Assembly: GCA_037447655.1 (NCBI GenBank)
Contig: JBBHKE010000165.1
Coordinates: 82,001-146,000, forward strand
DNA from: Zygnema cylindricum
Taxonomy: Eukaryota > Streptophyta > Zygnematophyceae > Zygnematales > Zygnemataceae
Direction: 5' to 3'
DNA length: 64,000 bases
This document shows, piece after piece, positions 1,120-52,086 of the stretch. Below the pieces are notes generated by a model that did no database searches, was not told where the DNA came from, and was given only the letters and a program-made list of their open reading frames with translations. Each line of letters starts with the position of its first letter. The stretch's first letter is position 1. The translations under genes were made by a program, and so were the position numbers.

Positions 1120-1275
1120 CCCACAAGGCACAAACTTTTTATAATATTTATCATAGAGAGCTCTTAGTAATGGTGTGGGCTACACAACATGTTAATGTTT
1201 GCTTCTATAAAGTTCATTTCTCGTTGTTTACGGATCATAAGCCTCTTAAAATGGATTATGGGGGCCAACAAACTA
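1120..1275 (+). pseudogene. Decayed Ty3/gypsy RNase H fragment
   Basis: Within an open frame starting near 1020 the translation contains YHRELLVMVWATQHV and then FSLFTDHKPLKM. These match the RNase H block of Ty3/gypsy polyproteins (typically Y-x-RELLA-VWA...F-L-TDHKPL). Sequence on either side in the same frame is not recognisable, and no RT or integrase motif was found nearby, so this is an isolated remnant. It is a different copy from the large element at 25-34 kb, in which the equivalent Lys codon is a stop. Confidence 0.7.
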
Positions 1276-1436
1276 ATCGTGAAAAAACACTGATAAACTT
1301 TAATCTTACAAAAACACATTTTTTAATTTTCAACCAGGTGTACAAAACAATAGATGTCTCATTAACATTAAACGTAGGTATGAAACGCCCCAAAATTAAG
1401 AATTATACACACATAACAAAATGTAAAAGTTTATAA

Positions 1437-3087: not shown

Positions 3088-3520
3088 ATGAAAGTGTTCG
3101 TTCCCATATGCAAAAGTAAAGGGCTTTTTTTTTTTTTTTTTCCTCCAAAGGGGAGTACAACGAGAAAATATTATGCTTCACTAAAAAAATTTAAACTACG
3201 GTGCAATTTGCGTTACTCCAATTTATCGTCTTTCTCTTTTCGACCTACTAACACATCATTCCACCTCATCTTTAAAATTTTCTCGAAGCCGACCCACGAG
3301 GTGATTCCACTAACAGTAACAGTTGAGCAACAAATAAGAAAACGTCGTCACACGTGTCACGCGTTTTCAATTTTTTTTGCACGAGGGAGAGTACATACTA
3401 TTTTTTTCCTTGCTCGTCATGTGCATTTAAGTAAAAAAATGACAAACATGGGGTCTCAAACCTCCACTTTCATTCACGAGTCTCTTGCAAAAGTCTACGT
3501 GGGAGCGTACCCTAAAACTT
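3088..3520 (+). repeat. Diverged copy of the GGGTATGTCCCC (Q-arm) element
   Basis: The start (TCCCATATGCAAAAGTAAAGGG followed by a T run), then CAATTTGCGTTACTCC, then CGACCTACTAACAC, follow in order the same landmarks in the arm at 50601-50840. The second half (about 3375-3490, with GAGGGAGAGTACA and CCTCCACTTTCATTCA) is shared with 45100-45220. The 154-codon open frame here is therefore repeat sequence, not a gene. Confidence 0.5.
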
Positions 3521-3560
3521 TTAGAAACCTTAATAAGGCCTGTAAACTCTAAAAGTTCCC

Positions 3561-4737
3561 AGGTCACTCTGAAGACCCTTGAAAATGTATAAAACAGAAC
3601 TACAGAAGCTACAGCAAAGACAAAGCCATGTGTTAACAACTCGTTCGTCACGTAACTCGTGGGAATGAATAAAAACGTGGTGTCACGTCCTTGGCGCCTT
3701 TACCTTTTTGATCCGCTCTAAATTCTATGAAATTCGTACATTAACTTTTTGTGTATTTCATAACAGCGGCAATATTCGTATCCTGTCTTGTCCACACTAG
3801 TCACGTGAGTGGACAGAATTACAGTAGCGTCTTTGGCGCTATTTGCGATTCCTGGTGTACTTTCCTGTCTTGTTGTTCACGTTTCGACAGCGAAACTGCT
3901 AACAATAAGTCCGTAACGGAATGTCGCTTACAACGGTGTACGTTATGGCTCACAGGAATCTGGTCGGCGAACACGTGTCCCGTTGTGATGTACAATCTTC
4001 GTACATCCGGCATCATTGTCCGTCAACATTTTCTGCCATTCAGCGCTCTCCTGTTATAATGTTCATAAACGTGTTGTTTACCTCCTCAAGGTCTAGTCAT
4101 GAACTGATACGTTTGTTTCAAGCTTGAAACTTTTAAGATATAGTTTGATGTACCAATTCCGATCAGTTATAATGTCAATTCCAAAACCTAATGCTGTCAG
4201 CGTCAATATTTTTCTATGCCGAAATTACGTTTGACTTGTGCAAAAGTGCAACCCTAATAGCGAAAAAAAGATAGAAAACAGCAAAAAACACAGTCAAGAG
4301 AAGTTAAGAGCAAAAACAGAAAGAAAACCAGGCATTTATAGGGTTGAGAAATCCCCTAGATTGTGAACCATCCTCTTCTGGAAAGCTCTGTAGGCTAAGC
4401 TTTACCAACAATTCTTCTGCTTCAAATTTAATACGTTTTTTGTCAGCTTTTTCTCTTATATATCTATCCACCTTCCTGGTATTTTTTTGGCTACTGCTGT
4501 TGTTACAAACCCGAGGCAAAGCCTAAGCTTGTGGCAATCATTAACGTTAAAGTTAAAACTAGGTTTTTCCTTAAAAGTAATAAAACTTTAATCTGCTTTT
4601 GTTGCGATTTACAACAGAAGTCTGTCCTTCCTCGACAAATTTCATCTCCCTTCCACGACATTTTTTCATTTTTTTCCTTCAACAGATATTTCCGCAGCTA
4701 ATTTCATTTCGTTCAGCAAAACTTCGTTTATTCCACA
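3561..4737. other. Intergenic DNA upstream of the membrane-protein gene
   Basis: Small open frames occur (for example 3751-4059 on the plus strand and 4304-4519 on the minus strand). None has a recognisable domain, and both begin at non-ATG codons. The 200 bases before 4738 are T-rich and would hold the promoter of the gene that starts there; no clear TATA box was picked out. Confidence 0.4.
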
Positions 4738-8382: not shown

Positions 8383-8604
8383 TAAAAAGCACGATGGTAA
8401 ACCATCTGAGTCTGGGGGTACAAAAGGGGTGGCATGACCAACACTGAAAAACAACAATAAAAAACAAAAAGAGCGACAAAAACACACCCAAAAAAAGGAA
8501 ACAACAAAAAGGAAAATAAAAGCACCCTAACTCAAATGAAAAGCACGGCAACTCACAAAAACAAAAATACAAACCCCAATCCCAACCCTAACTTAATTAA
8601 ATAT

Positions 8605-9630
8605 CTATGAAAAACAACCCCGTAAGTCCCCCCAGCCCGGGGGAGCACGTTGAGGGAGTTCCGGAGCACGGCGACAATCCATAACCGCAACAGTCGATCG
8701 GAGGAGAATAGAAGCCTGCACTCGTTGTAGAGCTACAGATAAGCGTTGACGGTAAAAAGAAGTAAGGACCGAAGGAGGAGGGCTCCCAGGTCCTCGACGC
8801 TCGAAAGCACGTCGAGCACAAGTACGGAGAAACTCGTCCAGTGCAACACCCAAACAACCAAAGATCTCGACCGCCATCGGGATAAAGTCATCCATAGGGT
8901 CCCGGTGGGCATAATCACGCTCCTTCGCCTTAGCAGCATCACGAGCTGCCACCCCAAGATGTCGAGCCGCCTGACCAACAACTGTAGCTGAAGTAGGGTT
9001 CGCCAGAACAATATCACCGAAAATGCGACGGGCACCATCAAGCAAAACAACATCGATCCGACGCGAGGGAATAATATGAGAAACCTCTCGACGCACAGAA
9101 AAGCCCCCTTCTGAAGCAATAGTGGCAACGGTGTCTCGAATAGTGTCGTGCACCTGGATCAAATCTCCCCCATGGGAGCAACGAAGCAAATGGACACCAT
9201 CGGGCCCCAAGACACGACCACATGCACAAACAAGAGAGCCAAGTAAAGGAGGATGGGGGAGGCCGAGGCGAAACCGAAGGGCAGTGGTGAACTGAGCTGG
9301 TGAGAATCGGAGAGTGGACAAAATAGGTGTGGCAAAAAGCCAAGACCCAGAACCAGGTCCACCACAAGAGAGAAGACGGGCACGAGAAGAATCGGAGGGA
9401 AGCGCCGTGAGAAGCTCGGATTTAATGGTGGCGACAACCCGGTCGGAAATCGATTCCTGGACACGCTCAACAGATTTTGTAACAAGGGTCGAGAAAATCG
9501 GCACATCCACAAGGGAATGGGGAGGAAGAGAACGTGACGCGCTGTCTGAAACTCGGGGGATAACAGTAGCTAGAACGGGGGTGTCCCCAACCAAGAAACG
9601 GGAAACAAGAGTAGAAGCAAAAGGCACCAA
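8605..9630 (-). CDS. LINE polyprotein, C-terminal part: zinc knuckle and restriction-like endonuclease
   Basis: 341 codons overlapping the RT frame by about 60 bases in a different frame, hence a frameshifted continuation and not a separate gene. Residues about 135-160 contain C-x-CG...DGVHLLRC, a C-C-H-C knuckle placed as in R2-like elements before the nuclease. It is followed by GG and then RRIDVVLLDGARRIFGDI at about 190-210, which fits the R-x-D ... D pattern of a PD-(D/E)XK endonuclease that nicks the target for target-primed reverse transcription. The end of the frame (FERRGPGSPPPS...) recurs in the truncated copy at 13.4-13.7 kb. Confidence 0.75.
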   Translation of the reverse strand: MVPFASTLVSRFLVGDTPVLATVIPRVSDSASRSLPPHSLVDVPIFSTLVTKSVERVQESISDRVVATIKSELLTALPSDSSRARLLSCGGPGSGSWLFATPILSTLRFSPAQFTTALRFRLGLPHPPLLGSLVCACGRVLGPDGVHLLRCSHGGDLIQVHDTIRDTVATIASEGGFSVRREVSHIIPSRRIDVVLLDGARRIFGDIVLANPTSATVVGQAARHLGVAARDAAKAKERDYAHRDPMDDFIPMAVEIFGCLGVALDEFLRTCARRAFERRGPGSPPPSVLTSFYRQRLSVALQRVQASILLRSTVAVMDCRRAPELPQRAPPGWGDLRGCFS

Positions 9631-11687
9631 CTTCCCAAATAGGCAGCTGGAGCAACACGAGCGGTCGATAATAGACCCAACCCCCCAGTAGAGACAGGGA
9701 GGGATGCCTGAATGCGGGCAGATGGGCCAGACTCGCGATCAAATGTCCCGCGACCTAATAGAGAGTGGAGGACGTCCATGAGGCGATCGTTAAAAGCCGA
9801 GAGAGAGGAGAGAAATGTCGAGGTGGGAGGGGAAGTACGAGTGAGGTAAGAAGGGCGGTGGGGGAAACACCTGGTTAACATAGCAAAAGCAACTTGGGGA
9901 TCGGGAAGGTGAGGAAGGTCATCCACTTGGGCTAGATCTGTCTGTAAAGCATCTTGAAGGAATTGGGTCACGAAAGTATCTGAACCAAGGGGGCAACCAA
10001 GCACACGAATGCCATCGGAGGGAGAAGGGGTTTGAAAACCAGGGGGGGTAGTAAACGAAAGTGGAATATCCTGAGGAGACCAAATAACACACTTCGACAG
10101 CTGAACTGAAAGGTTGAGTTCAGCTAAACGTTCCCTGAAAAAATCATATGCCAACACGACTTGTTCTCTCGGCCCAATAATGTGCGTATCATCTGTGACC
10201 GAAGGAAAAAGGCAAGAAGGGAAGGCGGCTGCGGAGGCACGAAGGGCCCGGTAATGGGCAAGGGCGAACAAAGGTCCGCCGAGAGGGTCACCTTGGCGAG
10301 TGCCAGTAGCAGAGGAGAGAGGAATAATATCACCATCGGCCGAGAAGGAAAGGCTGCTTGTCAAAGAATAGAAAGCCCTCACAAAGGGGAACAATTGGAC
10401 AATCGGAGATGGAGCCGCCATAAGCTCTGAAAAAATCACGTTCCGATCCACCGTATTAAATGCATTGGAAACGTCGACTTGAAGGACCAACCAATCCGGA
10501 TGTACATCCAACAAAGCCCGAATCCCATGGACCACGGCCTCACAACCCCCTCTCGTGGCCACTCCAAACTGATGAGGAGAGAAATAATCATGGAAAGCCG
10601 GTTGGAGCTGGAGACATATCGCACGAGCCACCAACCTATATAAAACCTCTCCCACGGCAATAGGGCGGATCCCACCATTAGGTTTGGCGATTGCCACAAG
10701 GCGGGACGCTGTGAGAAGATCACAAATCTGAGGGGGAACATCCCCACTAGCTATAAGGGAACATACTCGAAAAAACACATCGAACCCCCGGGGACCCGAT
10801 TCAGGGGGCAAAACATCGCGAAACAACTCATATACTGTGCCCGAGGGGCCCCCCGCTGAAAGGTGAGGAGAAGAGCTAAGAGCCTTAATGAAAACCTCCC
10901 GATCCAAAGTAAAACTCTCAGAAGGCTCAAAGGTGTGGATGGAAAGGGGTAAAGGGGAAGGGGCAGGGGGGTGGAGAGCTCGAAGGACCTCAATAGTGGA
11001 AGAAGATCCGGGGGCAGGGGTGAATGGCTGTAGGGCCCGAACCGCTCGAGAAAGCTCACCAACTCGGCCTAAGTGAATTGCTCGACGATAAGAGGCCGGG
11101 ACATCCGACGGCTTAGGTGGCCGACGTGGTATGAAAGAGGTGTTCGATACTCGATCCTCATGCTCGGCGTGGAGGGACTTCCAGTCACCCCGAAGGAATC
11201 GGCGACAACGCGCCATAGTTTCTCTAGCCCCACTGCCCCCTCCACGACTTGGAAGGACTAGCACCCAGAGAGAGAACATAAGAAGTAGGTGCCAAGGAGC
11301 AGTGTCCGCCGGGTTTGAAGAAATGTGGGACAAGGGGAGGTGGAGGGCATCTTGTACTATTGTCCTGACGGCCACAGGAATACGGGTGTACAATCGCGGG
11401 CGGGGGGCTCCCAAATCATAAGCTCCCAAAACATCTAACTCACGTACGAAATTCCAATCCTCATCTGTGGGGCCGGACGGGAGTGTGGTCGACAATGATG
11501 GAGGAGAGGTGATAGACAAAGGACCACCCAAGGTTATACAATGTCGACAAATCCGTGTATGAAGGGAAATGCCGGCCCCAGCGGCAAAAAGGTTGTGACA
11601 CCCAGGACATTCCAAACGCCTCGAAGGTTTACGAGGTTTGGGCGGAAGTGGGGGAGGGAGAAGGGAATAAGAAGGGCTTCCGGACAT
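9570..11687 (-). CDS. LINE polyprotein, N-terminal part: zinc finger and reverse transcriptase
   Basis: 705 codons from ATG at 11687. Residues about 25-50 form a CPGC...H....C zinc finger, typical of the N-terminus of R2-like LINE proteins that bind target DNA. A proline-rich linker follows. The RT domain lies at about 290-560: RPIAVGEVLYRLVAR (palm/fingers), LQVDVSNAFNTVDR (motif A, with D), GTRQGDPLGGPLF (motif B) and SVTDDTHIIGP (motif C). Motif C has T-D-D where most RTs have [YF]-x-D-D. A thumb-like region continues to LLSTARVAPAAYLGS, after which the frame is lost; the last 20 residues (LLLLLLFPVSW) are out-of-frame sequence. The continuation is in the next frame from about 9630. It may be a dead copy with a single indel, or an assembly error. 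Confidence 0.8.
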   Translation of the reverse strand: MSGSPSYSLLPPPLPPKPRKPSRRLECPGCHNLFAAGAGISLHTRICRHCITLGGPLSITSPPSLSTTLPSGPTDEDWNFVRELDVLGAYDLGAPRPRLYTRIPVAVRTIVQDALHLPLSHISSNPADTAPWHLLLMFSLWVLVLPSRGGGSGARETMARCRRFLRGDWKSLHAEHEDRVSNTSFIPRRPPKPSDVPASYRRAIHLGRVGELSRAVRALQPFTPAPGSSSTIEVLRALHPPAPSPLPLSIHTFEPSESFTLDREVFIKALSSSPHLSAGGPSGTVYELFRDVLPPESGPRGFDVFFRVCSLIASGDVPPQICDLLTASRLVAIAKPNGGIRPIAVGEVLYRLVARAICLQLQPAFHDYFSPHQFGVATRGGCEAVVHGIRALLDVHPDWLVLQVDVSNAFNTVDRNVIFSELMAAPSPIVQLFPFVRAFYSLTSSLSFSADGDIIPLSSATGTRQGDPLGGPLFALAHYRALRASAAAFPSCLFPSVTDDTHIIGPREQVVLAYDFFRERLAELNLSVQLSKCVIWSPQDIPLSFTTPPGFQTPSPSDGIRVLGCPLGSDTFVTQFLQDALQTDLAQVDDLPHLPDPQVAFAMLTRCFPHRPSYLTRTSPPTSTFLSSLSAFNDRLMDVLHSLLGRGTFDRESGPSARIQASLPVSTGGLGLLSTARVAPAAYLGSWCLLLLLLFPVSWLGTPPF

Positions 11688-11929
11688 GGTTGATAAGTCA
11701 AAGACGACATGGGAATTGGGAGGGTGAGAGGAAGAGAAAGCGTGGGAGAGGAAAATGAACCATGTGGGATGGATGGGGAAATTGGTAGGAACCAGAATGT
11801 AACATAAAGTTTGATGCCGGAAAAGAAAGGGGCGGGGGGAGTGAGGGGGGGAGTGTGGGAAGGAGAGGGTTCAAGAATCGGTTTTGGGTGTGTAAGTGGT
11901 ATAGGTGAGGGGGTGGTGAGGGGGTGGTG

Positions 11930-24457: not shown

Positions 24458-24739
24458 GGAAATTTGATTTTTTTTTCGTGTGATGGAAGAGGAGATGGAA
24501 ATTCTTTAGTTGTTCTTGCCGTTTCTACATGGGTATACAACCAAAAATATGGAATAATATAGAGAAAATGTGACGAACATAAAACACAAAAGATTACCTA
24601 ACACAAAAAGTGATGATACAAATGGTGCGAGTTTTTTTAAACATTTCGCTGGCAGCTAGCATATGTCGTTTTGACCCACGGCCAAAACATAACACAAAGA
24701 GTTGTCATGCCGCATGGTATCGAACGCAGGCGCGAACGA

Positions 24740-24910
24740 CATTCTGCATGCGTGCACGATATTGCGCACGCACGCACAATACTGTGCTCTCGCGCGCGAT
24801 ATTTTGCATGCGTGCACAATGCGGTGCACGCACGCGCGATTTTGTGTCCACGCGCATGATATCACTTACGCGCGCACGATATCATTCACGCACGCACAAT
24901 ATTTCGGCGT
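24740..24910. repeat. 20-bp alternating purine-pyrimidine minisatellite
   Basis: Units of about 20 bases of the form GCACGCACGCACAAT / GCGCGATATT / GCATGCGTGCACAAT repeat about eight times. Because 20 is not a multiple of 3, all three plus frames give similar cysteine/arginine/histidine-rich peptides. These open frames are repeat artefacts. Confidence 0.85.
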
Positions 24911-25199: not shown

Positions 25200-26466
25200 G
25201 CATACATGTAATTAGGGAGGGTTTTTACCCTCGGACGTTGGATTATGCGGAACGTACGGCAGAAAATGTTGGCCGCCTATTGGCCAACATTCTAAGTAGT
25301 TTCATACATGTAAAGTAGACTAGACGTAGGCTAGTTTCGTTTAGGCCTAGCGTAGCTTCTACTTAGACTAATTCTCAAACTTAGAGAATATAGCTTTTGG
25401 ACAAGAATTTTCTCTTGGCGGCTGAGTTTTTTTCTTGTTCTAGCTCTCACCGACTGCTCACTTTTCTCTCTTCCTTTGCTAGCTAGCGATAGAGGCTAGA
25501 TAGGTTAAGGATATTTACCTTATATTTTTGCCCGCGCTCTTTAATCCACACGGCTCAAAGCTAAGTCCGGAAGGTTTCCCTCCAACTTGTGTCATTTTAG
25601 GGAAGTGTTGGAGTGAAGTTCGTGTGGAGAGGCATTCAGATCCGGTTGTGTCTTCTACGGGCAACGAAAAGGTTTGGAGTGTTTGTGCTTGTTTTGCTTC
25701 CATTTCGGTTCGGAGTGGGGAAGTGGATTTTGACCGAATTTTAGGGTTTTTCCTTGTTTTGGTTATAATTATTTAATTGCTTTGCTGCCACTTCGAGATA
25801 ACTCTTGTAAAGAATACGATATATACCCGAGAGCCTAGTGGTTACCTCGTGGCATAGTATTCTTGTCGAAAAGTCTCACTTTTTAAAATATTATTTTATT
25901 TGAATTAAATTAAAAAAAAAAAAATAACAAAAACATTTTGTTATTATATTCCATTATTTCTTTCTTTCAATCTTTGTCTCTTATTTGGGTGCCACTATAT
26001 TTCTTGGCTTTAGTGTTAAACCTTAATTTTGCAGCAAAATTAGGGTTAATCTGCAAAATTAGGGTTTGGCAGCATAATTAGGGTTTTGACTGCAGAATTA
26101 GGGTTGCAGCAGATTTAGGGTTTATTCCTTTTTATTCTAGTCCTTAGGTCGCTATCCTTTTATTCCATGGCTGCAGATTTGGAGTTTTGGCCGTCTAGAA
26201 TTAGGGTTTGGCTTTGGAATTAGGGTTTCCAAGTGAAATTAGGTTTGGCTGCTGGCTTTGGATTATTGTGGTCACGAGTTAGGCTGTATATTTGGAGTTT
26301 GAGCGGCCTCCAACTTTATTCTAACACACTTTCTCTATTTATCGTATTTGTGTGTCTTATTGGTTATCTTTCTCCCACCGAACTCTTTCTTTTTTCCCTT
26401 CCTTTTGGTCCCCTAACATTCCACCAACCACGTCTTCACGGCATGAAGGGTCTCGCGTAAGGTTAA
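25200..26466 (+). mobile_element. Putative 5' LTR or leader of the Ty3/gypsy element
   Basis: Non-coding stretch between the minisatellite and the gag frame. TTTGGCGACACTGC at 26468-26481 resembles a plant-type primer binding site starting TGGCGAC, which would put the end of a 5' LTR just before it. TGTAATTAGGGAGGG at about 25207 is a possible LTR start. I could not match this sequence to the DNA after the polypurine tract (34246 on), so LTR status is unproven. Confidence 0.3.
26020..26240 (+). repeat. Interspersed ATTAGGGTTT units (telomere-like)
   Basis: At least seven ATTAGGG or TTTAGGG occurrences, separated by GCAG/CTGCA-containing spacers of 10-20 bases. The plant telomere unit is TTTAGGG, but here the motifs are not tandem, so this is a degenerate minisatellite in the retroelement leader and not a telomere. 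Confidence 0.7.
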
Positions 26467-27192
26467 TTTGGCGACACTGCTTAGAGCGAATTTGGTAAAG
26501 CGAAATTTATCTTAGGGGGCCTTGGAAAACCCGACTTGCTTCGAACAAGTTCAGTTCACCCTTAGTGCTCACCAGAGTACTAAAGGTGTCTGTAAGTAGT
26601 CGATGCCTCGCGGGTGCAAGAGCCTTTCGATTGAGCGTGGACATTCGTGTATGGGATCGGTGTGGAGTGGTTCCATCGTGAACCTTACTTATTGTGCATT
26701 TGCATTTTCTTCCTTTCCATGCATGCTATCTGGCCCTAAGTGGCCTAGGTTTTTTGGGTGACTATTTGGAGTGGGATTTCTTGCTAGATCTTGTCGTGAG
26801 TGGCAGTATGTAGACCTTTTCTCGGCTGTGTTATTGTAGATCTGCACCCAAGGGTGCCTGGATACAATTTTCTTGTTTTTATAGATATGGATTTTTAGCC
26901 TTGCCAATTGTTTGCAAGGTAAAGATTTTGGTAAACTGGCTTCTTCCTAGATATGACCAGATATGACCAGCGGGTCTTGATAGTGACTGAGTGTGTTGAC
27001 TGGACGAGTGGATTGGTCTAACACGTGTTCCACCTCGGTTAGGTTGTACAAAACATTTCAATATTGTAGTCAGGGTTTTCTCTTTGGTTTATGCCCACAC
27101 ATTGGGATAACCTTCCTTATTTTTCTTGGTCCACCTGAGGTGGTACACTGTATCGTCTTTCGCAGTTAAATCTTTCGGATTTTCCCAAATCA

Positions 27193-28620
27193 TTGACCAC
27201 ATCCGATCAAATTGTGGATTGCATATCGCCATCAGTGCGGTTTGGTCTCCCCTCTATGTCATCATTATCCTCGGTTTCATCTAGGTCATACCTAGAGGGA
27301 ACTGAAGAAGACTTTCTAGAGGAAACCTTTCCAACTCACACTCGTATGTTTTGTGCAAGCCCAATTTTGGCACAACCGGCTCATCCCCCTCTTTACGACA
27401 TGGCTTCCTATACCGAGGGATCCATGGGTAGGATGCAATTCTGCTTTTCTAGATTAAAAGACACCATGTCTTTATCGCATTTCCGGATGTTATACGACAC
27501 ACAAATGAGGGATTTAGCATTTAGATATCAGGATAGGTTTGCCTTTTGTGTCGCCTTTTCCCTTTTCTGTCGATACCTACGTGGTACGGCCCTCACTCTC
27601 TTCACTCGCAAGTACGAAGATGTTCTTGAGATGACAGAGTACGTGGCTCCCTTTGCATGGTTACCAAAAGTCCTCGGCCAAATGGATATCCCATACTAGG
27701 ACGCAAAACCGGCGGTATTTGATTTTAACGAAGATGAGTTGTATCCTGCTATCCCTGAGGTTCCGCATCAGTGTGCGGTGGCTACTCTTGCAGCGGTCTT
27801 AGCAAGAGCGGCGGGAACCATTCATTTACGTGACCCTCTCTCAATCATGTTTGACATCCTCCAAGAGGAGTACCGGATGCAAAATCTGGATCAAATCAAA
27901 GAGTTGATGAACTTCGAGCGTAGGCCGGGCGAAACCGTGCCCGCCTTACGAGCCCGAATGGAAACTTTGCGAGAAGTATTACCGGACCTCATGTCTAATG
28001 CGGAGGCTGTCCAAAAATTTGTGGGATAGTTTCCAGGTCCGTCAAAGAGGTTTATTCAAAACCACCTCAGTCAGATGTATGGACTTAAAATCACATTTGA
28101 GCAAGCGGCTCAATATGCTGTAGAGTATGAGATGCAAACATCTTGGTGGGACGTTCATTAGAGGTCCTAACCTCCTCGTAGAGAACCATTTAATCCATCT
28201 CCTCCTCCACCTAAAAATCCATGGCCTCGGAATAGGCCCCAAAAGACACCAGCCATGGGATCTCCTCCAGCTAGTCATAGTGACCGCATCTGCTTTCGAT
28301 GTGGAATAACCGAGCACGATGCGCGCATGTGTCCGGACAAGGCAGCCACTTGCACTCATTGCCACTAGAAAGGACATTATGTCCATCAGTGCCACATTAA
28401 GGATCTTAATTTCACTTATCAAAATCAGATAAAGAATGGGGGATTTTCGGCCAGTTCCGCGAAACCAATCACTCCGCCTAAGGGGACCGCGAGGGAGGAA
28501 GCTCCGCCTAAGATTTCTCGTAGGGGGAGGGAGAAGGCCGAGCTTCAAGCCACAATGACGGTCATGATGAAAGAGCAATTTGCAGCTTTCATGGCGAAAA
28601 TAGAACCCTAGTTTATTGGC
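27193..28620 (+). pseudogene. Ty3 gag with two CCHC zinc knuckles
   Basis: Open from about 27193 (non-ATG in this copy) to a TAG at 27697. It continues in the same frame from 27700 to a TAG at 28027, and after further stops through the nucleocapsid. The first knuckle is CFRCGITEHDARMC at 28291-28332 (C-x2-C-x4-H-x4-C). The second begins at 28351 (CTHCH, then a stop at 28366-28368, then KGHYVHQC), again C-x2-C-x4-H-x4-C if the stop is read through. Capsid-like helices include FDILQEEYRMQNLDQIKELM. The long minus-strand frame over 28042-28725 is a shadow. Confidence 0.75.
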
Positions 28621-29103
28621 ATGGCTTGGACTGTTGTCCACATTCTGTCGTTGGCCGGGCGAACCCTTCGGGATTCCATTGTTTAACAACGGGCGGCTAC
28701 ATTTGAAAAGGGCTTGGCGGACCACAACCGAGAGGGAAAATTACAAAATTCTCGAGTCCCACTTTCATTCGCAAAGGATCCTCTTCCTCCTCTACCGGAA
28801 ACGGCTTCCACTATCGTTGTGGAAGCACTAACCATATTAGATGGCACCATTCATGAGGCTCATCGGGTGAAAGAGCGATTAAATATTCTCTCAGCGATGA
28901 TGGAGGATGTTCCTAAAGCCCTTTCCCACGCTGATGAGATCGCAGCTGCAGCCGCCTTGTGGGCACTGCAGTTAAACCGCAGCCTCTCGACAGTTCAACC
29001 GGTTACTACGGAAGAGCGTCGTTATCTTGATCCCCATATCAGTTTCTTGGATAACTCCCAGGGATCATTCTAAGGTAACGGTGTTCACCCCACTCTTCCT
29101 CTT

Positions 29104-29649
29104 ATGGACACCGAGACCAAACCCGTGATCCTCGGATCCGGGTTTGCCCTCAAGCTTGGTTTGACGATAGACAAGCTTCAAGCGACCACGACCCGCCTTC
29201 TTACTTCGGCTGGGACCACGGAGCCGGTCCTCGAAATCACAAAGGACCCGCTCATCTTTCGGTTTCAAACAAGAACCGAAAATGAGTCCGTTGAAATTGC
29301 TATCAGGGCATTGTTCAGTAAATGTGACGACTATGAGTGTTTGGTGGGTCAAGACATTATATTCCGAATAGGCGGTGGCGTGGACATGCACGACCAAACA
29401 TTCTCTTACCGACCAACACACTTTCCGGAGCGCAAAATCTGCTACCCTCTCATTTCATCCCGCCGACCTTTGCCCACTATGGCTCACTCGGCTACGACTC
29501 TTCCGACATTTTTGGGGAACTCCGTTGGGGAGGAAATTTTCCACTCTTTTTCGGCCGAAGAAATCCTACTGGATAGTTCTCCCTTACCTGAGCTCTTTGC
29601 GGAACCGGGTTTTCTTATCAACTCTCACACATTTGACAATATTTATTAG
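29104..29649 (+). pseudogene. Ty3 aspartic protease region
   Basis: Starts with MDTETKPVILGSGFALKLGL. Plant Ty3 proteases of this type usually read L-x-DTGAQP-x-[ML]LG, so the catalytic DTG is DTE here, a change expected to inactivate the enzyme. Later VGQDIIFRIGGGVDMHDQTF matches the conserved [LI]GQD flap-side block of the retropepsin fold. A TAG at 29647 ends the frame; the methyltransferase follows about 70 bases on, with a 1-base shift at 29788. Confidence 0.65.
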
Positions 29650-29718
29650 GCCACGTTATCTATTCCATTAATAATTATCCCATTCGTACCTGCAATTGCA
29701 ACTGATCCTTCGGGTTTC

Positions 29719-30847
29719 CTTCCTATCAGTTGGAAGCCCATACAGCTGAGTCCTCATATAGACGGGGTCGTTATTTTAGATTTATTTCGCTGGGATTGGA
29801 ACTTCACTATTGTCATGTTTACTGAATGGTCTCCTCATCCGTCACTACTATGCAGTAGAAATTGATGCATTAGCTAGAAAAACACAACTACACCACTGTA
29901 ATATTTTGCATTCATTGTATCCACTGTTGTTCCCAATGTCAGCCTTTCTACACATGCACACTGCTCTTTCACAAGACATCTACATCTTTAGTAATCATCA
30001 TCTACGGGATGTCGAACCGGTAGACCGTGTTTTTGGAGGGTGGGAGTGTCAAAGCATGTCTCGGGCCGGTAAAGGTCTTGGTTTGGCGGATCCTCGTAAC
30101 AAATTGTTTTTTGAGCATTTGAGGGTCCTTCATTTTCTTCAAACCATGGCCATACCTGTCGGATACATTCTAGAGAATGTTGCCGCTTATAATAATCCTC
30201 GGCTTATAGTTATTGCTGACTATAAGCGCATAGAACACTTTATCGGACACCCGCTAATTATTAATGCCGCTCCGCATGGGTCCTTGGCACATCGGGTTCG
30301 CTCCAAATGGAGGAACCTAATCGATTTCGGTCGTCTTCGTGAGGCTAATTTGTTTGTAAGACCCCCCACTGCAGACATTACGACCGCTTTGCTTCCCTTT
30401 CACCAAGTCCAATCATTTGTCCAAATTGACTCCCCTCCAAATTATAGCATTAATATACCTGACCAGCCACTCAAGGTCCTTCCTACTTTAGTGTCTTACC
30501 CTAATTCCCATGCATACTCTCATAACGGTCAAGGCATGCTTTCGAATAATGTCACTGGAAAGTTAGAGGAGCCTACGGCCACAGAACGAGAGTTAGAGGA
30601 GCCTACGGCCACAAAACGGGAGCATCTCATGCATTTTATTCCACGCACTAGTGCGGCCCCCGACCTTAGAGATAGAGAGCGTTGCACTTTGTTAGGTAGG
30701 GTCATGGATCCTCAGTCTCTATCATTTGTCTTAGGTCTCGGCCTTGCAGCAGGTCGCTACGCACAGAATCAACTCGTGCAACCCGCTAGGAGGGGGGGGG
30801 GATACAACGACTCCTTCACGTCATGTTTCCTCTCGCACCTCTCCTAG
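29719..30847 (+). CDS. C5-cytosine DNA methyltransferase (DNMT3-like) inside the Ty3 element
   Basis: Transfers methyl from AdoMet to cytosine in DNA. The AdoMet motif I is split by one extra base at 29788: VVILDLF lies in the upstream frame and AGIG follows in the frame of the 345-codon open frame (29810-30847). Further motifs in that frame: YYAVEID (motif II-like), DRVFGGWECQSMSRAGKG (motif IV; catalytic Cys at 30047-30049, with Glu where a Pro normally precedes it), LADPRNKLFFEHLRVLHFL, ILENVAAYNN (ENV, motif VI, 30173-30181), SLAHRVRSKWRNL (motif VIII, close to the AHRARYFWGNL of DNMT3), and RERCTLLGRV near the C-terminus. The LFFE...LH spacing and the AHR-R--W-NL block favour DNMT3 over DNMT1/CMT. 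The target-recognition part (30430-30640) holds a 30-bp duplication. A run of G at about 30787-30796 precedes the loss of frame. The start codon of the open frame is not ATG because this is an internal domain of a polyprotein. Confidence 0.85.
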
Positions 30848-31188
30848 TCTCAAGGGAAATCCGTTTAAGTTTTTTCTTTTCCCTTCTGTCACACTTGCGG
30901 TTAAGGACATCTCTATCTATGATTTCCTCAACCCGAGTCATATGTCTTGGGAAATCCCGACCTATACAGCCGTTCAATCCACAATTTCATTGTTTTCCAG
31001 TCTGGCACTTCACTGGACAGCTACATTTATCCACAATTTCATTGTTTTCCGGTCTGGCACTTCACTGGACAGCTACATTTTCGACGCGTAGCTGGCACCA
31101 CTGGGTGAACTGCCTACAGCAGACTCCGATAACATAGGAGTCAGGCCACTCACTCATCGTTGATGAGCAAATTGCATTTGCTCAAGCC

Positions 31189-32196
31189 ATGGAAGCTTTC
31201 ACTCTCAAGAGTCCTCTGATGCCCAAGTGGAAGTTCGGTTCCAGTCTCACAAAGGCGCAACATGCACTATTAAGTGACACTGTCACCCGCCATATAGATG
31301 CGTTTGCTTTCTCCATGAATGACCTTGGCCGTCATTCTACTTACAAAATGTCAATCGACCTTGAAGACGATCGACCTATCTTTAAGCCGAAACGACGTCT
31401 CTCCGAAATGGAATCGGAGATGGTGGACAAAAGATGGGCAAAATTGGAAGAATCCGGTCTATTCTATCGGTCGGATTCCACCTTTGCCGCCCCCACAGTC
31501 ATGCATAGGAAGAAAGATTCCGACGGAAATTTTACTGAGCGAAGAATGTGTGGGGACTACCAAGAGCTCAATGCACGGACCGTTCAAGACCGCCACCCTA
31601 TGCCTCTAGCGGAGGAAATATTTGACCATGTAGGTGGTGCGAAGTTCATTAACATTCTTCACTTACGTTAATGGTTTAACCAGATTGAAATTGAGGAAAG
31701 AGATCGACATAAAATTGCATTTTGGGGCATTGATGGTCGGTGGGAATGGGGAGTCATGCCTTTTGGTCTTCAGAACGCACCCGCCGTGTTTCAAAAAGTC
31801 ATGGATTTGGTGTTGGGTGGATGGAAATTTGCTCGGTGCTACATTGATGACTTGATAATTGCTTCTGCCACGGTTGAGGAGCATGCACGTCATATTGAGT
31901 GGGTTCTCACCGAGTTAAAGAAAGTCGGGCTGAAGTGTCACCCAGCCAAGTGTACTTTTGGTACGGAGGGAGTGCCTTATCTCGGCCATTTTATTTCGGT
32001 TGAGGGCATCACTACCTCGGAAGCTAAGGTAGAGGCGATCGCCAAACTGTTGGCTCCCACCGATCTCACTAGTCTCAGGGCTTTCCTCGGACTAGCCAAT
32101 TATTACCGTCGTTTTGTACTGAATTTTAGTACGATCGCTTCTCCCCTCAATGACCTTCGCAAAAAGGAAGTGCCTTTTGTTCGGGGACCCGCCTAA
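31189..32196 (+). pseudogene. Ty3 reverse transcriptase
   Basis: Contains the N-terminal P-x-x-AAPTV-x-RKKD block (SDSTFAAPTVMHRKKD), MCGDYQELNARTV (RT motif with D-Y-x-x-LN), HPMPLAEEIFDHVGGAKF, then a TAA at 31669-31671 within the LRWGFNQI-like segment. In the same frame it continues WGVMPFGLQNAPAVFQKVMD, RCYIDDLIIAS (catalytic YxDD), GVPYLGHFISVEGI and LRAFLGLANYYRRFV. All are hallmark Ty3/gypsy RT blocks. A TAA at 32194 ends this part. Only one internal stop, so the RT is among the best preserved domains. Confidence 0.9.
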
Positions 32197-32895
32197 GTAG
32201 AAGAGTTTCAAAAACTGAAAACAGCCCTTTCCACTGCTCCAATTCTCCGACCTCCTAACCACAAGCTTCCCTTTTGCCTATAAACAGATTTCGGGAAGCC
32301 AGGCATTGCGGCTATTTTAACGCAAAGAGAGTTGAATGGAGAGGAATACGTAGTGGCATATGCCAACCAGAGAAATAACCGAGCTGATTCCAATTACAGT
32401 AGTTACGAGGGTGAATGTCTCGCCGCGGTATGGGGTATTGTTCATTTTCGACATCATCTTTACAGCAAGCCATTCACGCTCCTAACTGACCATTAACCCC
32501 TTCATTGGTTGATGACCAGCGATAAGATTTCAGGGAAGCTTGCCCGATGGGCTTTAATTTTACAAGAGTACGACGTTGAGATCATCCATCGGCCCGGGTT
32601 GTTAAGTTTGAAGGCCGACGGGATTTCCCGGAATCCACTACCTCATACCACCGATAACGGGGTCTGGCAGGATTCCGACGTAGACGAGGTACCGATCATG
32701 TCGGTTGGTTCCTATATCACTTACTGTCTCTCTTCTATTCCTCACCCTCGGCCGGCCACAGATCCGTGGCGCGACGGCCCAATAATCCTCTTCCTTTCCT
32801 CTCAAGCCTTTCGGTCCGGTATTACCGCCGAGGAGGAAGACCTAGTGAAGAAACGAGCAAAAAATTATCTGTGGCTCGGCGGATCTTTAGTTTGA
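32197..32895 (+). pseudogene. Ty3 RNase H and connection to integrase
   Basis: Same frame as RT after the TAA at 32194. The first catalytic Asp lies in L-stop-TDFGKPGIAAILTQ (TAA at 32281-32283). SSYEGECLAAVWGIVHF supplies the Glu. LLTDH-stop-PLHWL has a TAA where the family has Lys (an AAA to TAA change would explain it). LARWALILQEYDVEIIHRPG and KADGISRNPLP form the tether. The open frame 32509-32895 continues into a linker of no recognised fold. Confidence 0.8.
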
Positions 32896-34050
32896 TTGCT
32901 GGCAGACACCAATCATCCGCATGTCCTCCGGCCAACCGAGCGCTTGTCCTTGATTGAGCAGAAACATACCAAGCTCGGACACTACATGACCAAGCGTACT
33001 TTGAGCTTTGTACATGCGCGCTATTGGTGGTCCGGAATGCGAGCGGATGTGGCGGACATTCTCCACAAATGCGCCACATGCGACCGGTTACGTACCTCTT
33101 TCTCTAATCGTCACATGTCTCTACAGCCATTGCCCATCAGAGGATTGTTTTATCGTTGGTCCATGGATCTCGCCGGACCGTTTCCCTTATCCAGAAAGGG
33201 GAAACAATACATCATGATAATGATTTAAAATTTCAGCAAGTGGGTAGAGGTGGTGGCTCTTCCCCACAAGACAAACTAAATTGACCACCGCTGTTTTTAA
33301 AGAGCATGTTCTCATGCGTTATGGAACTCCTGCAAAGGTTCTCACGGTCCAGGGTACGGAGTTCCGAGGGGAATTTCAAGTGATGTTGGATAAAGTTTTA
33401 ATTGATCATCACTGGACGAGTTGTGATCACCCACAAGCTGATGGCTTGGCGGAACGAGTTGTCTTGACTTTTAAGCGGGCTCTCCAAAAGCATTGTTTGG
33501 AGAAACACATCTCTGTATGAAGGAATCCTTAGGCTATATCACCATGGGATACCGGATGGCCGTACAGGCTAGTTTGGCTAATTTCAGCCCGTACTATATT
33601 CTCTTCGGTCAAGCACCCATGCTCGGTCAGAATATTCAGAAAACAACAAGTTTACCTTTGTCTATAATGTCTGATACCATATTCTTGGAAGAACTAAGTC
33701 GCCGTGCTCTGCTTTTCGCTCGTGAGATGCCCATGGCTTTTGATAATTTGCAAATTGCCCAACATCGAGATACTTTGCGCTTTGCTACCACGGGAAGTGG
33801 CAGTTACAAGCCTCAACGGAAATCTTATCGCGTTGGGGATTACGTGTACCTCCGGCGACAGTTTTTCGACACTTTGGACACGGATGTTTCACCACACATC
33901 CTTCGTGTGGTGGAAATGGATGCTAATGGGATGTTGGGTTTGCAGGGTGCGTATACAAGGATAATTAAAGAGCATTCGAAAAACTGTGCACCTTGTTACT
34001 TACCGGATTTGTCACAGGATATGGATCCGATGAGGATGCCAATCGGAATG
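32896..34050 (+). pseudogene. Ty3 integrase
   Basis: The N-terminal H2C2 zinc domain reads HTKLGHYMTKRTL...HARYWWSGM...DILHKCATC. In the core, the first Asp is in WSMDLAGPFPLSRKGKQYI. The second block reads LTVQGTEFRGEF, where the family has D-x-G-x-EF, so the catalytic Asp is replaced by Val (33347-33349). The Glu is in DHPQADGLAERV. The frame shifts near 33270 and back near 33500. The C-terminal GPY/SH3-like part is KSYRVGDYVYLRRQFFD. Loss of one DDE residue, the shifts and a stop at 33226 mark it as non-functional. Confidence 0.85.
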
Positions 34051-34228
34051 TACCATTTGCAGGCGAGCAGACGACGAGACTTCCATGCTTTTGTGCGACC
34101 ATTGTAACCAAGGGTTCCACATGGAGTGCTTAGTTCCTCAATTGACAGCTGTGCCAGCTGGCCACTAGTTTTGCCATAGCTGTCGTGAGCTGCCGGCGGT
34201 TATGACCAGCTCCTTTGCAGGCTATTGA
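34037..34228 (+). pseudogene. PHD finger at the C-terminus of the Ty3 polyprotein
   Basis: In the second plus frame (the preceding integrase is in the first), the sequence reads CTIC, RRADDETSMLLCDHC, NQGFHMECLVPQL, a stop where the family has Trp (TAG after PAGH), then FCHSC and a TGA just before the polypurine run. Spacing C-x2-C-x12-C-x2-C-x4-H-x2-C...C-x2-C is that of a PHD finger, a reader of histone H3 tails. MLLCDHC and GFH--CL-P-L are the typical PHD core. This would place a chromatin reader downstream of integrase, where chromoviruses carry a chromodomain. The in-frame stop and the frameshift show decay. Confidence 0.8.
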
Positions 34229-35552
34229 GCTTGGGGGGGGGATTTATAGGGGTCACTTCACGCTAGGGGAGTATTCTTCCCTTTTATTCCTTTGGTCATC
34301 TTCACCTTTATTCTTTTACATGTTGTATATACATTTTTCTCTTCTCATTCATTTTCGTTTGTATATATGTCTGGAGCATGACTTTGCTGGTTGGGATGCA
34401 TGTTCGCTCTTGCTTATCTCTCATGCACGACAGAGTAGTAGAGGGTTCCACTTTAGAACGAGGTAGAAATTATTTCCTGGTGTTGTCCTCGTGGCCAGAA
34501 GCTTGAAGTAGAATGTCGGCTGGCAAATCTGTTACGTATGAATAGAAGAAATGTTCGAATGTCCAATGTCCCATCACTTTGATGGCTTCATGATGACCAC
34601 TGAAATATTTAACATAGAAAAAGTCAAACTTGGAAAATTAAAAGATAGATAACAAAACTTCATTATTTCAAATAAATGCATGATAAAAATCAAATTTTGA
34701 GTTTACAAAAACGCACCCTCTTGTCGCCAACATCGTTGCTCCTTGACCACGCCCGACATGGGTTTTATGAGATAGGGAAATATTTTTGGTTTTGAATGTT
34801 TTGTTAATGTACTGCAACTATGTATTATAGCAAAGAGGCTGCATTGACGGTGTTTCTTTTCCTTCTTGGTTTTTGTTAAAACTCTCTTTTCCGTAAAGGG
34901 TTCACGTACCAGATTTCTTTCATCGAAAACTTGGGAATTGCGTTTTTATTTGTAGCTAATTCTTACCTCCAAAAAAATTGTTGGGCCACATCACCTACTA
35001 GGAAAATAAGAAAGTCTAAATGGCGTATGCATCCGATAAATTCTACACGGCCATTTTGCGAATGAAAATTACCATAAAAAACGCTAAAAAATTAGTAAAA
35101 CTTGTTATTGGGTTGTTTATGAAACATGAAAAAAAAATCACAATTTCGTTAAAGCTCTAGGTTTATAGATTAGTTACTATATTAGTTTTCCCATTACTTG
35201 TAACAATTGCCAAAACACAACCCTTATCTGGCCCAAGTTAAGGAAGATTATTTGAAAAACCATCCGCTAACTAAGCATTTTTGGAATCATTGCAACGACT
35301 AAAACACGCATGGTTCATGATAAACTGACTCCTTCAAAAAAAGGTTTTTGGCGCTGTCACCTAAATACACCAATCGTTATAACTTCCTAAATACAACTCT
35401 AATTCGTCCGATTCTTTAGCTGACGTCTACTGAATTCATATCTTTATATTCTACACTTTTAATTACAAATAAGTTCGATCCCTTATTACTGTTATTTATT
35501 GGGTGGCGGTTTTGGACGTTATGGCTTTCGAGGAAAAAGTTTACACTAAACA

Positions 35553-50309: not shown

Positions 50310-52086
50310 TACACACTGTATCGTTATTAGTGTTGAAAAGTTTTTCGTCACTTAAAACATCTTATCTCCGTACACTTTTGTCCAATTTTCAATTTCAGAC
50401 GGCCAATCGGAAGCTGAGAATCTCACCTTTCAATCGCAACCGTCAGATCCACAATCCGACATGTGTGTACGGAGAAAATATGTTTTAAGCGACGAAAAAA
50501 GCATTAACATTAAGGGTATGTCCCCATGTACTTGTAACTTAGCGATCTTATTTGGAATTTTAGCGCGGATCCGCCGGACCTGGTTTTCAAGTGTCCCTAT
50601 GGGTATGTCCCCATGTGCATAAGTAAGGGTTTTTTTCTGTCGTTTTCCTGTAAAACTTAGCCCCATACTGCCTAAGTTGCAACCGTACGAAGCAATCGCA
50701 AATTTGTAGAGTACAATTTGCGTCATCCTTGAACTTAGGATGTAGGAAAATTTGTCGTCTTGTGTTTTTCGACCCACGGCGTCGACAAAAAACGTCATCT
50801 TCAAACCTATCTTTAAAACACATCGGCGATGTGTTTTAAAACTAGGTATTTTCGATAAACAAATAGGAAGTTATGTTCGCACGTGCCGTAATTTTCGAAA
50901 ATTTTCATACGATTTCAAAGGACAAGAAAAAGTACGAAAATTCGCTATGTTTTGTCCGTTTGCGTTCAATACGACGAAGAGAAGTACACAATTTGTTTGG
51001 TTTTGTCCGTTTTCGTCCAGTTCGGATATTTTTTTGCAGGGGTCTCGAAATTCCGATGCCATTTCACGTCGACCGGACGGGCGACGCAAAGGCAAAGTGC
51101 ATCTTCTTCAACCGTGAAACGGCACAAACTGGAAGGCGGTACGTCTACAATGTCACGGTAAGACATGCGACGTCACAAGCAGTTCCAAAAAATAACGTGC
51201 GACCACAGATTGTAGACATTGACAACCGTCACAGGTATTGTCGACGTATACAATCGTCACAAGCGTAAGTTACGATTTCGTCCTTACACACATAAGGACA
51301 CTTGAAAACCGGGTCCAGCGAATCCGCGGTAAAATACAAAGTAAGTTCGCTAAGTCACAAGTACGTGGGGACATACCCTATGTATGTCAGGACGAAATAG
51401 TAACTTACGCTTGTGACGATCGTATACGTCGACAATGCCTGTGACGGCTGTCAGCGTCTACAATCTGTGGTCGCACGTGATTTTTTGGAATTGCTTGTGA
51501 CGTCGCATGTCTTACCGTGACATCGTAAACGTACGGCCTTCCAGCCTGTGCCGTTTCACGGTTGAAGACGAGGCGCTTTGCTTTTGCGTCTCCTATCCGG
51601 TCGACGTGAAATGGCATCGGAATTTGAAGACCCCTGAAAAAAAGAAATCCGTACTGGACGAAAACGGACAAAACCAAACAAATTGTGTAGTTTTCTTCGT
51701 CGTATTCGAACGGAAACGGACAAAACATAGCGAATTCTGTACTTTTCTTTGTCCTTGGAAATCGTATGAAAATTTTCGAAAATTACGGCACGTGCGAATA
51801 TATGCTCCTATTTGTTTATCGAAAATACCTAATTTTAAAACACATCGCGCATGTGTTTTAAACGTAAGGTTGAAGATGACGTTTTTTGTCGGAAGTGGGT
51901 CGAAAAACACAAGACGACAAATTTTCATACATCCTAAATTCGAGGATGACGAAAATTGTGCGTTACAAATTTGCGATTCCTTCGTACGGCTCGACTTAGG
52001 CAGTACGACGCTAAGTTTTATAGGGAAACGACAGAAGAAAACCCTTATGCACATGGGGACATACCCTAATAGCGATTCACGTTACA
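50310..52086. mobile_element. MITE split by a nested insertion
   Basis: The left part (50310-50513) starts TACACACTGTATCGTTATTAGTG and shares its interior with 18533-18748 (GAGAAAATATGTTTTAAG, AGCTGAGAATCTCACCTTTC). It stops at AACATTAA. The missing right end, TAATAGCGATTCACG, is found at 52067 after the nested element, so one MITE is split by the insertion at 50514-52066. Confidence 0.75.
50514..52066. mobile_element. Interlocked palindromic element with GGGTATGTCCCC ends
   Basis: Ends are GGGTATGTCCCCATGT and ACATGGGGACATACCC, flanked on both sides by TAA (50511-50513, 52067-52069), a 3-bp target duplication as seen with PIF/Harbinger-type elements. Internal order is P (50514-50600), Q (50601-51291), inverted P (51292-51378), inverted Q (51379-52066). 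Q and its inverse pair over about 690 bases with few mismatches. No transposase was recognised; the 229- and 153-codon frames inside are mirror frames of the two arms. Confidence 0.75.

What the first reader, a model, noticed from the sequence alone, without database searches (positions are those of the whole stretch)
27190..34245. Ty3/gypsy retrotransposon that carries its own DNA methyltransferase and a PHD finger
The sequence shows gag, protease, a DNMT3-like C5-methyltransferase, RT, RNase H and integrase, with a PHD finger downstream. Retrotransposon-borne DNMTs are known from charophytes and dinoflagellates. A PHD finger in the same element would pair a methylation writer with a histone reader, suggesting self-methylation of new copies and chromatin-guided integration. 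The functional link is inference.
Basis: partly seen in the sequence, partly recalled or inferred. Interest (0 to 1): 0.92.

Follow-up and report, generated by a model that had tools for sequence, protein, structure and literature searches.

The report
Jumping gene with methyltransferase and PHD
The window holds a decayed copy of a Ty3/gypsy retrotransposon that carries both an enzyme of the DNA-methylating kind and a PHD finger, a domain that in other proteins reads histones, on its integrase; the same pairing occurs in an intact relative, so it is a real feature of the family and not an accident of neighbourhood.

Summary
On the + strand, 27.1-34.24 kb, lies a decayed Ty3/gypsy element in the order gag-PR-DNMT-RT-RNaseH-IN-PHD, broken by 15 in-frame stops and several frameshifts; no LTR pair is detectable. 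The DNMT is DNMT3-like, the PHD genuine (PF00628 1.5e-10). Of 68 relatives of the integrase C-terminus, 26 run 55 aa or more past it; all 26 show a PHD-like finger, 17 with all eight zinc ligands. P0074 and P0075 hold DNMT, integrase and PHD in one ORF. L001, an independent contig, has the window's order with intact ORFs: gag-PR-DNMT, one in-frame UAG, RT-RNaseH-IN-PHD. That UAG lies in a tobamovirus-type readthrough context. The DNMT has two positions in the clade, matching two integrase branches. The PHDs lack the H3K4me3-cage tryptophan (0 of 33). Retrotransposon DNMTs and LINE-borne PHDs are published; I found no report of a natural integrase PHD or of the pairing. Function is inference. 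The window's own genome could not be searched.

The parts
27139..28686 (+). gag-like tract (frame 3), broken by stops; CCHC zinc knuckles at 28291-28392
   Evidence: no Pfam hit on the pieces 27139-27699 and 27700-28029; collinear with P0072, tblastn 27415-29787; knuckles read directly
29074..29649 (+). retropepsin-like protease region (frame 3)
   Evidence: no Pfam hit on the window piece; aligned with P0072, whose residues 605-700 match PF13975 at 1e-6, and with P0001
29762..30847 (+). DNMT3-like C5-cytosine methyltransferase domain (frame 1 from about 29786; motif I split by a frameshift); motifs GGWECQ, ENV, HRVR, LLG; internal 30-bp tandem duplication at 30558-30617
   Evidence: PF00145 1.4e-8; homologues P0001, P0002, P0072-P0076; profile best to DNMT3A; duplication
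30977..31080 (+). 52-bp tandem duplication in the DNMT-RT linker (decay)
31138..32196 (+). reverse transcriptase (frame 3, one internal stop)
   Evidence: PF00078 2.9e-20 on 31672-32196; best solved structure Ty3 RT 4.5e-32
32197..32580 (+). RNase H
   Evidence: PF17919 1.8e-26 and PF17917 1.3e-20 on 32197-32496; tail in the next ORF, PF17917 0.015, below cut-off
32731..33228 (+). integrase N-terminal zinc domain (H2C2) and start of the catalytic core
   Evidence: PF17921 1.6e-13; tblastn of P0002 on 32731-33270
33248..33565 (+). integrase catalytic core, second part (frame 1)
   Evidence: no Pfam hit on 33248-33517; P0004 residues 1-77 at 57% identity, 33308-33565
33526..34044 (+). integrase C-terminal domain (GDYVYL...CAPC)
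   Evidence: 68 homologues; P0004 at 55% identity
34049..34183 (+). PHD finger (C4HC3; one stop codon inside), one frameshift after the integrase
   Evidence: PF00628 1.5e-10; P0004 PHD at 60% identity
34233..34241 (+). run of nine G, the expected place of a polypurine tract (inference)
   Evidence: read directly; no LTR could be shown

Best explanation
A decayed member of a Ty3/gypsy clade whose integrase ends in a PHD finger and which carries a DNMT3-like methyltransferase. In the window's half of the clade the layout is gag-PR-DNMT, then pol (RT-RNaseH-IN-PHD). In the relative L001 the two are parted by one in-frame UAG with a tobamovirus-type readthrough signal, so the DNMT would be made at Gag level and pol as a minor extension (inferred from sequence). 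Proposed mechanism: the DNMT travels in the particle and methylates the cDNA or the fresh insertion (inferred). The PHD, of the kind that reads H3 unmodified at K4, tethers the integrase to H3K4-unmethylated, mostly silent chromatin, much as chromodomains tether chromoviruses to heterochromatin (inferred). Shown: domain content, order, co-occurrence in an element with intact ORFs, congruent splits in DNMT and integrase trees. Not shown: activity of either domain.
For: Domains and order. PHD on 27 of 68 integrase relatives by Pfam, and PHD-like on 26 of the 26 that run at least 55 aa past the conserved CAPC (24 by motif, P0018 and P0019 by eye; 17 of the 26 have all eight zinc ligands). DNMT, IN and PHD in one ORF: P0074 and P0075. 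gag-PR-DNMT / RT-RNH-IN-PHD in L001. UAG-CAA-UCA between DNMT and RT is the only stop+CARYYA among 299 stop triplets of any frame on the + strand of L001; chance of CARYYA at a given site 0.0012-0.0015; UAG-CAR-YYA is the published type I readthrough motif (PMC3542737, passages). DNMT tree: the two positional classes separate at 100/99; integrase tree splits at 100/99 into halves that hold them. PHD class: tryptophan two residues before the zinc-binding His in 0 of 33 PHD cores (glycine in 31); close matches to BAZ2A/BAZ2B and ATXR5 PHDs among the structures and to Lid, BAZ2B and ATXR5 by sequence.
Against: No activity data. KnitGypsy-Dnmt3, the published gypsy DNMT, gave no methylation in yeast, called inconclusive there (PMC5890265 section 10). 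The catalytic Pro-Cys-Gln is Glu-Cys-Gln in 8 of 9 retro-DNMTs examined, the window included; only L001 has the usual Pro. L002 may lack a DNMT. Readthrough rests on one contig. No LTR was found in the window, and the window's genome could not be searched, so copy number and intact sister copies are unknown. PHD specificity is inferred: the model is good only in the PHD part (mean pLDDT 57.9 overall); the top-ranked fold hits were PHF1/MTF2 Tudor-PHD structures with poor superposition (rmsd 13-15), and the list also holds acetyl-lysine and H3K4me1 readers.
Confidence: 0.7

Rival explanations
1. The DNMT and the PHD are separate passengers: the PHD is a fixed, perhaps structural part of this integrase clade, and the DNMT was picked up by some lineages for its own reason (for example to mark cDNA as self or shield it from deamination), with no working link between the two.
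For: A PHD-like finger is present in 26 of 26 relatives that reach it, while L002 shows PHD without a DNMT between RNaseH and IN. The DNMT sits at two different places in the polyprotein.
Against: Both are kept together in the window, L001, P0074 and P0075. The retro-DNMT sequences that reach the integrase C-terminus (P0074, P0075, and L001 as an element) also have the PHD, 3 of 3; the other retro-DNMT proteins (P0001, P0002, P0072, P0073, P0076) end before that place.
Confidence: 0.4
2. The DNMT domain is no longer a DNA methyltransferase: the Pro-to-Glu change in motif IV and its Gag-side position point to a non-catalytic or RNA-directed role inside the particle.
For: GWECQ in 8 of 9 retro-DNMTs against PCQ in L001 and in the bacterial-type P0077; KnitGypsy-Dnmt3 gave no methylation in yeast, inconclusive.
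Against: The nucleophilic Cys, the EN of motif VI and the motif VIII HRxR residues are invariant in the 8 aligned DNMTs and present in L001; L001 keeps the usual PCQ.
Confidence: 0.2
3. Chance neighbours or a nested insertion: a gypsy element that happens to lie beside a DNMT gene and a PHD gene.
For: The window copy is split into many ORFs and frames.
Against: Relatives from independent records hold the same joints in one ORF: PR-DNMT in P0001, P0072 and L001; integrase C-terminus-PHD in 26 proteins, in P0074 and P0075 and in three loci; the whole order in L001.
Confidence: 0.02

Closest known systems
KnitGypsy-Dnmt3 of Klebsormidium nitens (de Mendoza et al. 2018, PMC5890265; outline, sections 9-11 and passages read)
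   Same: Gypsy-type domain set with a Dnmt3-related DNMT in the Pol polyprotein; the closest described system.
   Different: The main text never mentions a PHD (0 occurrences) and calls the domain composition typical of Gypsy; its repeats are DIRS-like. Figures and supplements were not readable, so a PHD drawn in a figure cannot be excluded. Its sequence was not recovered here, so common descent of the DNMT is untested.
SymbioDIRS-Dnmt3 of dinoflagellates (same paper)
   Same: Retrotransposon DNMT3 with two domain orders in the polyprotein; shown there to methylate CG in yeast.
   Different: DIRS class with tyrosine recombinase; no PHD in the text.
PHD-bearing ORF1 of CR1 and L2 LINEs (PMC4120745; abstract and passages)
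   Same: A PHD in a retrotransposon; its authors suggest general targeting of the genome during integration and found no functional study.
   Different: Non-LTR elements, PHD in ORF1 (or at the start of ORF2), no integrase; no DNMT in the passages seen.
Chromoviruses (Ty3/gypsy with an integrase chromodomain; targeting role recalled)
   Same: A histone-reader domain fused to the integrase C-terminus; this is what the PHD would work like.
   Different: PHD in place of a chromodomain; no chromodomain hit in the scans.
Host DNMT3 enzymes with an ADD (PHD-like) module (recalled)
   Same: Couple a reader of H3 unmethylated at K4 to a DNMT3 catalytic domain.
LEDGF-IBD fusions with the ING2 PHD or HP1alpha chromodomain (review PMC8149907, passages)
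   Same: Engineered proof that a histone reader tethered to an integrase redirects integration.
   Different: Artificial, retroviral, and with an H3K4me3-type PHD.

Membership tests
Ty3/gypsy retrotransposon | RT closest to Ty3 | tested here: met
   Ty3 RT/RNaseH 4ol8 at 4.5e-32, first of the 12 distinct sequences listed
Ty3/gypsy retrotransposon | Order PR-RT-RNaseH-IN with H2C2 zinc domain and DDE core | tested here: met
   the core of the window copy is broken and seen by homology to P0004
Ty3/gypsy retrotransposon | Flanking LTRs | tested here: inconclusive
   none detectable in the decayed copy; L001 closes on itself with an exact 127-base overlap, as a collapsed LTR element would
Chromovirus | Chromodomain at the integrase C-terminus | tested here: not met
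   PHD there instead
DNMT3 family methyltransferase domain | Best profile match to DNMT3 rather than to other C5 methyltransferases | tested here: met
   A6 profile: DNMT3A 1.3e-17, DRM2 or DRM-type chains from 8.6e-12, HaeIII 7e-9. Single sequences were less clear: window HaeIII 2.2e-6 and DNMT3A 2.5e-6; P0001 DNMT3C 1.7e-5
DNMT3 family methyltransferase domain | Catalytic motif IV Pro-Cys | tested here: not met
   window GGWECQ; 8 of 9 retro-DNMTs have E, L001 has P; so I call it DNMT3-like
KnitGypsy-Dnmt3 lineage | DNMT descends from the same capture | not tested
   none of the 7 hits is named as K. nitens; a K. nitens integrase fragment (P0026) falls inside the IN clade
H3K4me0-type PHD finger | No aromatic cage residue two before the zinc His; close to PHDs solved with unmodified H3 | tested here: met
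   (sequence and fold only); that the cage tryptophan sits at this place is recalled
H3K4me0-type PHD finger | Binds unmodified H3 tails | not testable with these tools
   needs a binding assay
Type I stop-codon readthrough (tobamovirus type) | UAG-CAR-YYA between two in-frame ORFs | tested here: met
   L001 3489-3497; motif from PMC3542737; not shown for the window copy

The most novel reading that the evidence does not exclude
A whole clade of retrotransposons carries both halves of de novo methylation logic in one element: an integrase-borne reader of H3 unmethylated at K4 picks the landing site, and a Gag-level, particle-packaged DNMT3-like enzyme methylates the incoming copy, so that each insertion arrives in silent chromatin already marked. 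The element would thereby write its own silencing, and the balance between the two would be set by stop-codon readthrough.
Probability: 0.3. Interest if true: 0.92.

Novelty: new variant of a known kind. Interest (0 to 1): 0.77.

Why it matters
Why a transposon should carry an enzyme of the host's silencing system has been open since the 2018 report. A clade in which the writer goes with an integrase that has its own putative histone reader makes the question testable: mutate the PHD and the DNMT separately in a natural intact copy and follow landing sites and methylation. It would also add a second kind of chromatin reader, beside the chromodomain, to the ways in which gypsy integrases may choose sites. 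The relatives in environmental data (one integrase-PHD cluster, P0021, stands for 916 sequences) suggest that the integrase-PHD fusion is not rare.

Tried and rejected
Own-genome copies: the genome search did not complete, so copy number, intact sisters and host identity stay open. Viral contigs: 7 scans found no relative. First genome-contig scan with the DNMT: none; the second, with the integrase-PHD alignment, gave L001-L003. DNMT structure: model too poor to use (pLDDT 35.7), not searched. Integrase H2C2 tree: weak, with long branches meeting, not used. LTRs: the 23420/35549 repeat rejected as part of a satellite-like array. DIRS-like inverted repeats: none found in 26400-35200. CpG depletion as a sign of methylation: observed/expected CpG 0.85 in the element against 0.79-1.35 in five other stretches, no signal. 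tRNA and Rfam scans of the window: nothing. Papers whose listing held 'phd finger' beside gypsy and that I checked by passages: PMC3286476 (a mosquito gene near an element) and PMC7602945 (a pine gene), neither an element-borne PHD.

In one search only the 7987 candidates sharing most words were scored, and P0002, found, did not reappear for a reason I do not know; the lack of liverwort or K. nitens names among the DNMT hits is therefore weak evidence. The length filter of the protein search also hides full-length relatives.
Full report
WHAT IS THERE. The + strand between 27139 and about 34241 carries, in order, a gag-like tract with CCHC knuckles, a protease region, a C5-cytosine methyltransferase domain, RT, RNase H, integrase and a PHD finger. 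Pfam hits on the separate pieces: PF00145 1.4e-8, RVT_1 2.9e-20, Integrase_H2C2 1.6e-13; RT_RNaseH_2 1.8e-26 and PHD 1.5e-10 (stops read as X in those two pieces). Gag, protease, integrase core and C-terminal domain gave no Pfam hit themselves and are identified by tblastn collinearity with relatives. The copy is dead: 15 stops in five of eight tracts, frame changes at the start of the DNMT, between DNMT and RT, in the integrase and just before the PHD, and two short tandem duplications. No LTR pair can be shown; a nine-G run at 34233-34241 stands where a polypurine tract would be (inference).

IS THE PHD PART OF THE ELEMENT? A search with the integrase C-terminal ORF found 68 proteins. 27 match PF00628 at 0.01. 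26 of the 68 run 55 aa or more past the conserved CAPC, and all 26 have a PHD-like finger there: 24 by motif search, P0018 and P0019, both degenerate, by eye. 17 of the 26 keep all eight zinc ligands; the other nine have lost one or more or are cut. The other 42 end earlier; a few, such as P0007 and P0047, show the first part of the finger, some run off frame, and most say nothing. In P0004 the integrase core from the second catalytic stretch on, CTD and PHD are one ORF, 57%, 55% and 60% identical to the three window pieces. Members with an organism's name are from Marchantia polymorpha, Calypogeia fissa and Klebsormidium nitens; the K. nitens fragment ends without reaching the PHD place.

IS THE DNMT PART OF IT? 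The DNMT ORF alone found two proteins, P0001 and P0002; a three-row profile found seven: P0001 again, P0072-P0076, and a weak bacterial-type enzyme, P0077, used as outgroup. P0002 did not reappear there, for a reason I do not know. P0072 and P0076 have protease then DNMT by Pfam, though the protease match of P0076 is below cut-off; P0001 has the same by alignment. P0073 has RT-RNaseH-DNMT-IN and stops in the integrase core. P0074 has RT-RNaseH-DNMT-IN-PHD in 1829 aa. P0075 has DNMT (from motif IV on)-IN-PHD in 1209 aa. P0002 has DNMT-IN. In P0074 Pfam did not call the DNMT at 0.01, and in P0073 it was below cut-off; both were found by the retro-DNMT profile, at 1.1e-73 and 1.5e-88, and are placed by sequence.

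A RELATIVE WITH INTACT ORFS. A scan of prokaryote assemblies with the integrase-PHD alignment gave three contigs, which I take for eukaryotic contaminants of MAGs. L001 (9285 bases) holds ORF 3-3491, gag-PR-DNMT (PF00145 6.8e-12; protease 7.8e-4, below cut-off), and directly after it in the same frame ORF 3492-6635, RT-RNaseH-IN-PHD (PHD 4.3e-10). This is the window's order, unbroken but for one UAG and for the contig ends, which fall inside gag: the gag start lies at 8582-9283. The ends overlap by exactly 127 bases, so it is a closed assembly path, as expected of a repeated LTR element. L002 has RT-RNaseH-IN-PHD without a DNMT between RNaseH and IN, but begins shortly before RT; L003 has IN-PHD and begins shortly before IN.

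EXPRESSION. The stop between the L001 ORFs reads AAG-UAG-CAA-UCA. UAG-CAR-YYA is the type I readthrough motif of tobamoviruses and others (PMC3542737, passages). It is the only stop+CARYYA among 299 stop triplets in any frame of the L001 + strand, with a chance of about 0.0012-0.0015 at a given place. If used, DNMT is made with Gag and pol as a minor extension. P0076 also ends after its DNMT and before RT; P0072 runs on into what looks like the linker before RT, so the stop is not general. In the window this joint is scrambled.

TREES. DNMTs split by position at 100/99: before RT (window, P0001, P0072, P0076, L001) against between RNaseH and IN (P0002, P0073, P0074, P0075) (10 rows; the outgroup branch is very long, so the root is unsure; without L001 the second group had 96/94). 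For P0002 and P0075 only the side towards IN is seen. The integrase C-termini split at 100/99 into halves holding the window and L001 on one side and P0074, P0075, L002 and L003 on the other (24 rows picked by me from 74). A wider 52-row tree, made before the loci were found (19 of 71 rows dropped for length), also separates the window's group from P0074/P0075, with weaker support at the deepest fork (94/60). DNMT and integrase thus look long associated; whether the DNMT moved once or was caught twice is open.

WHAT KIND OF DNMT AND PHD. A profile of eight retro-DNMTs ranks DNMT3A first (1.3e-17), then DRM-type chains (8.6e-12) and HaeIII (7e-9). PHROG phage methyltransferases also match (P0072, 5.3e-20; a different library, so not comparable), and NCBIfam dcm matches below its cut-off. 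Motif IV reads GWECQ in 8 of 9, the window included, against the usual PCQ in L001; the Cys, EN and HRxR residues stay. The PHD resembles Lid, BAZ2B and ATXR5 fingers by sequence, with WSTF, DPF2 and others near by. In the fold search the top hits were PHF1/MTF2 Tudor-PHD chains with poor superposition, followed by BAZ2A/B, DPF, MOZ and ATXR5 fingers with rmsd mostly 1-2 over about 50 residues; BAZ2A and ATXR5 are listed with unmodified H3 or H3 peptides in their titles, but readers of acetylated or K4me1 H3 are in the list too. The tryptophan that H3K4me3 readers have two residues before the zinc His (recalled) is absent from 33 of 33 cores (27 of the 68 relatives, P0074, P0075, the window and the three loci).

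HOW IT MAY WORK. Shown: content, order, co-occurrence, congruent splits. Inferred: the PHD steers the integrase to nucleosomes unmethylated at H3K4; the DNMT methylates cDNA or new insertions. Engineered tethers support the principle that a PHD can redirect integration (PMC8149907, passages). SymbioDIRS DNMTs methylate CG in yeast, while the gypsy one tested did not, inconclusively (PMC5890265, section 10).

WHAT IS KNOWN. Retrotransposon DNMTs, one in a gypsy element of K. nitens, are published (PMC5890265: outline, sections 9-11 and passages read; figures and supplements not). PHDs are known from ORF1 of CR1 and L2 LINEs, where targeting was suggested but untested (PMC4120745, abstract and passages). 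PHD has 0 occurrences in the main text of PMC5890265, of the plant LTR survey PMC6317226 and of the accessory-domain review PMC6338049. Searches of 5.39 million open papers for PHD with gypsy, integrase or retrotransposon gave no report of a natural integrase-PHD fusion in what I saw: 2 of 2 papers listed, 15 of 511, 0 found, 12 of 148, 12 of 41. The unlisted rest of those lists and subscription papers were not seen.

VERDICT. As a kind it extends known DNMT retrotransposons. The functional story remains untested, the window copy is a fossil, and the genome it lies in could not be searched.

Noticed in passing
P0074 residues about 1650-1829 (source JGI): After the PHD the polyprotein has a stretch with DPFAGAG and TDAPW, which look to me like a second, adenine-type methyltransferase (motifs recalled); Pfam lists nothing beyond the zinc finger in that piece at 0.1.
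   Followed up: partly
C-terminal tails after the PHD in L002 (ORF 3-3818), L003 (ORF 1-2082) and P0075: A shared short tail (L003: RLGVVRYLGARAGLKCFEAKMEDGT...SAAEVRHRLMP) in the other half of the clade, perhaps a small barrel domain; no Pfam family above cut-off in the P0075 tail and none at 0.01 in L002 and L003.
   Followed up: no
DNMT motif IV of the window (about 30050) and seven relatives: Pro-to-Glu change in the catalytic PCQ motif, shared by both positional classes but not by L001: parallel change, or a clue to the root.
   Followed up: partly
window 8605-11870, - strand: A second retroelement: a long ORF with RT (PF00078 1.7e-17) and an overlapping downstream ORF, probably a non-LTR element.
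   Followed up: no
window 1017-1433, + strand: Fragment of another gypsy-type RNase H (PF17917 9.6e-9).
   Followed up: no
window 50601-52066: The stretch matches its own reverse complement at 87% over its whole length, an imperfect palindrome of about 1.47 kb.
   Followed up: no
window 24731-24901: Direct repeats with a 20-base spacing, rich in CG and CA steps.
   Followed up: no
L001-L003 records: Contigs filed under cyanobacterial, Mollicutes and Halorubrum MAGs that carry a eukaryotic-type retrotransposon; likely contamination of those bins.
   Followed up: no
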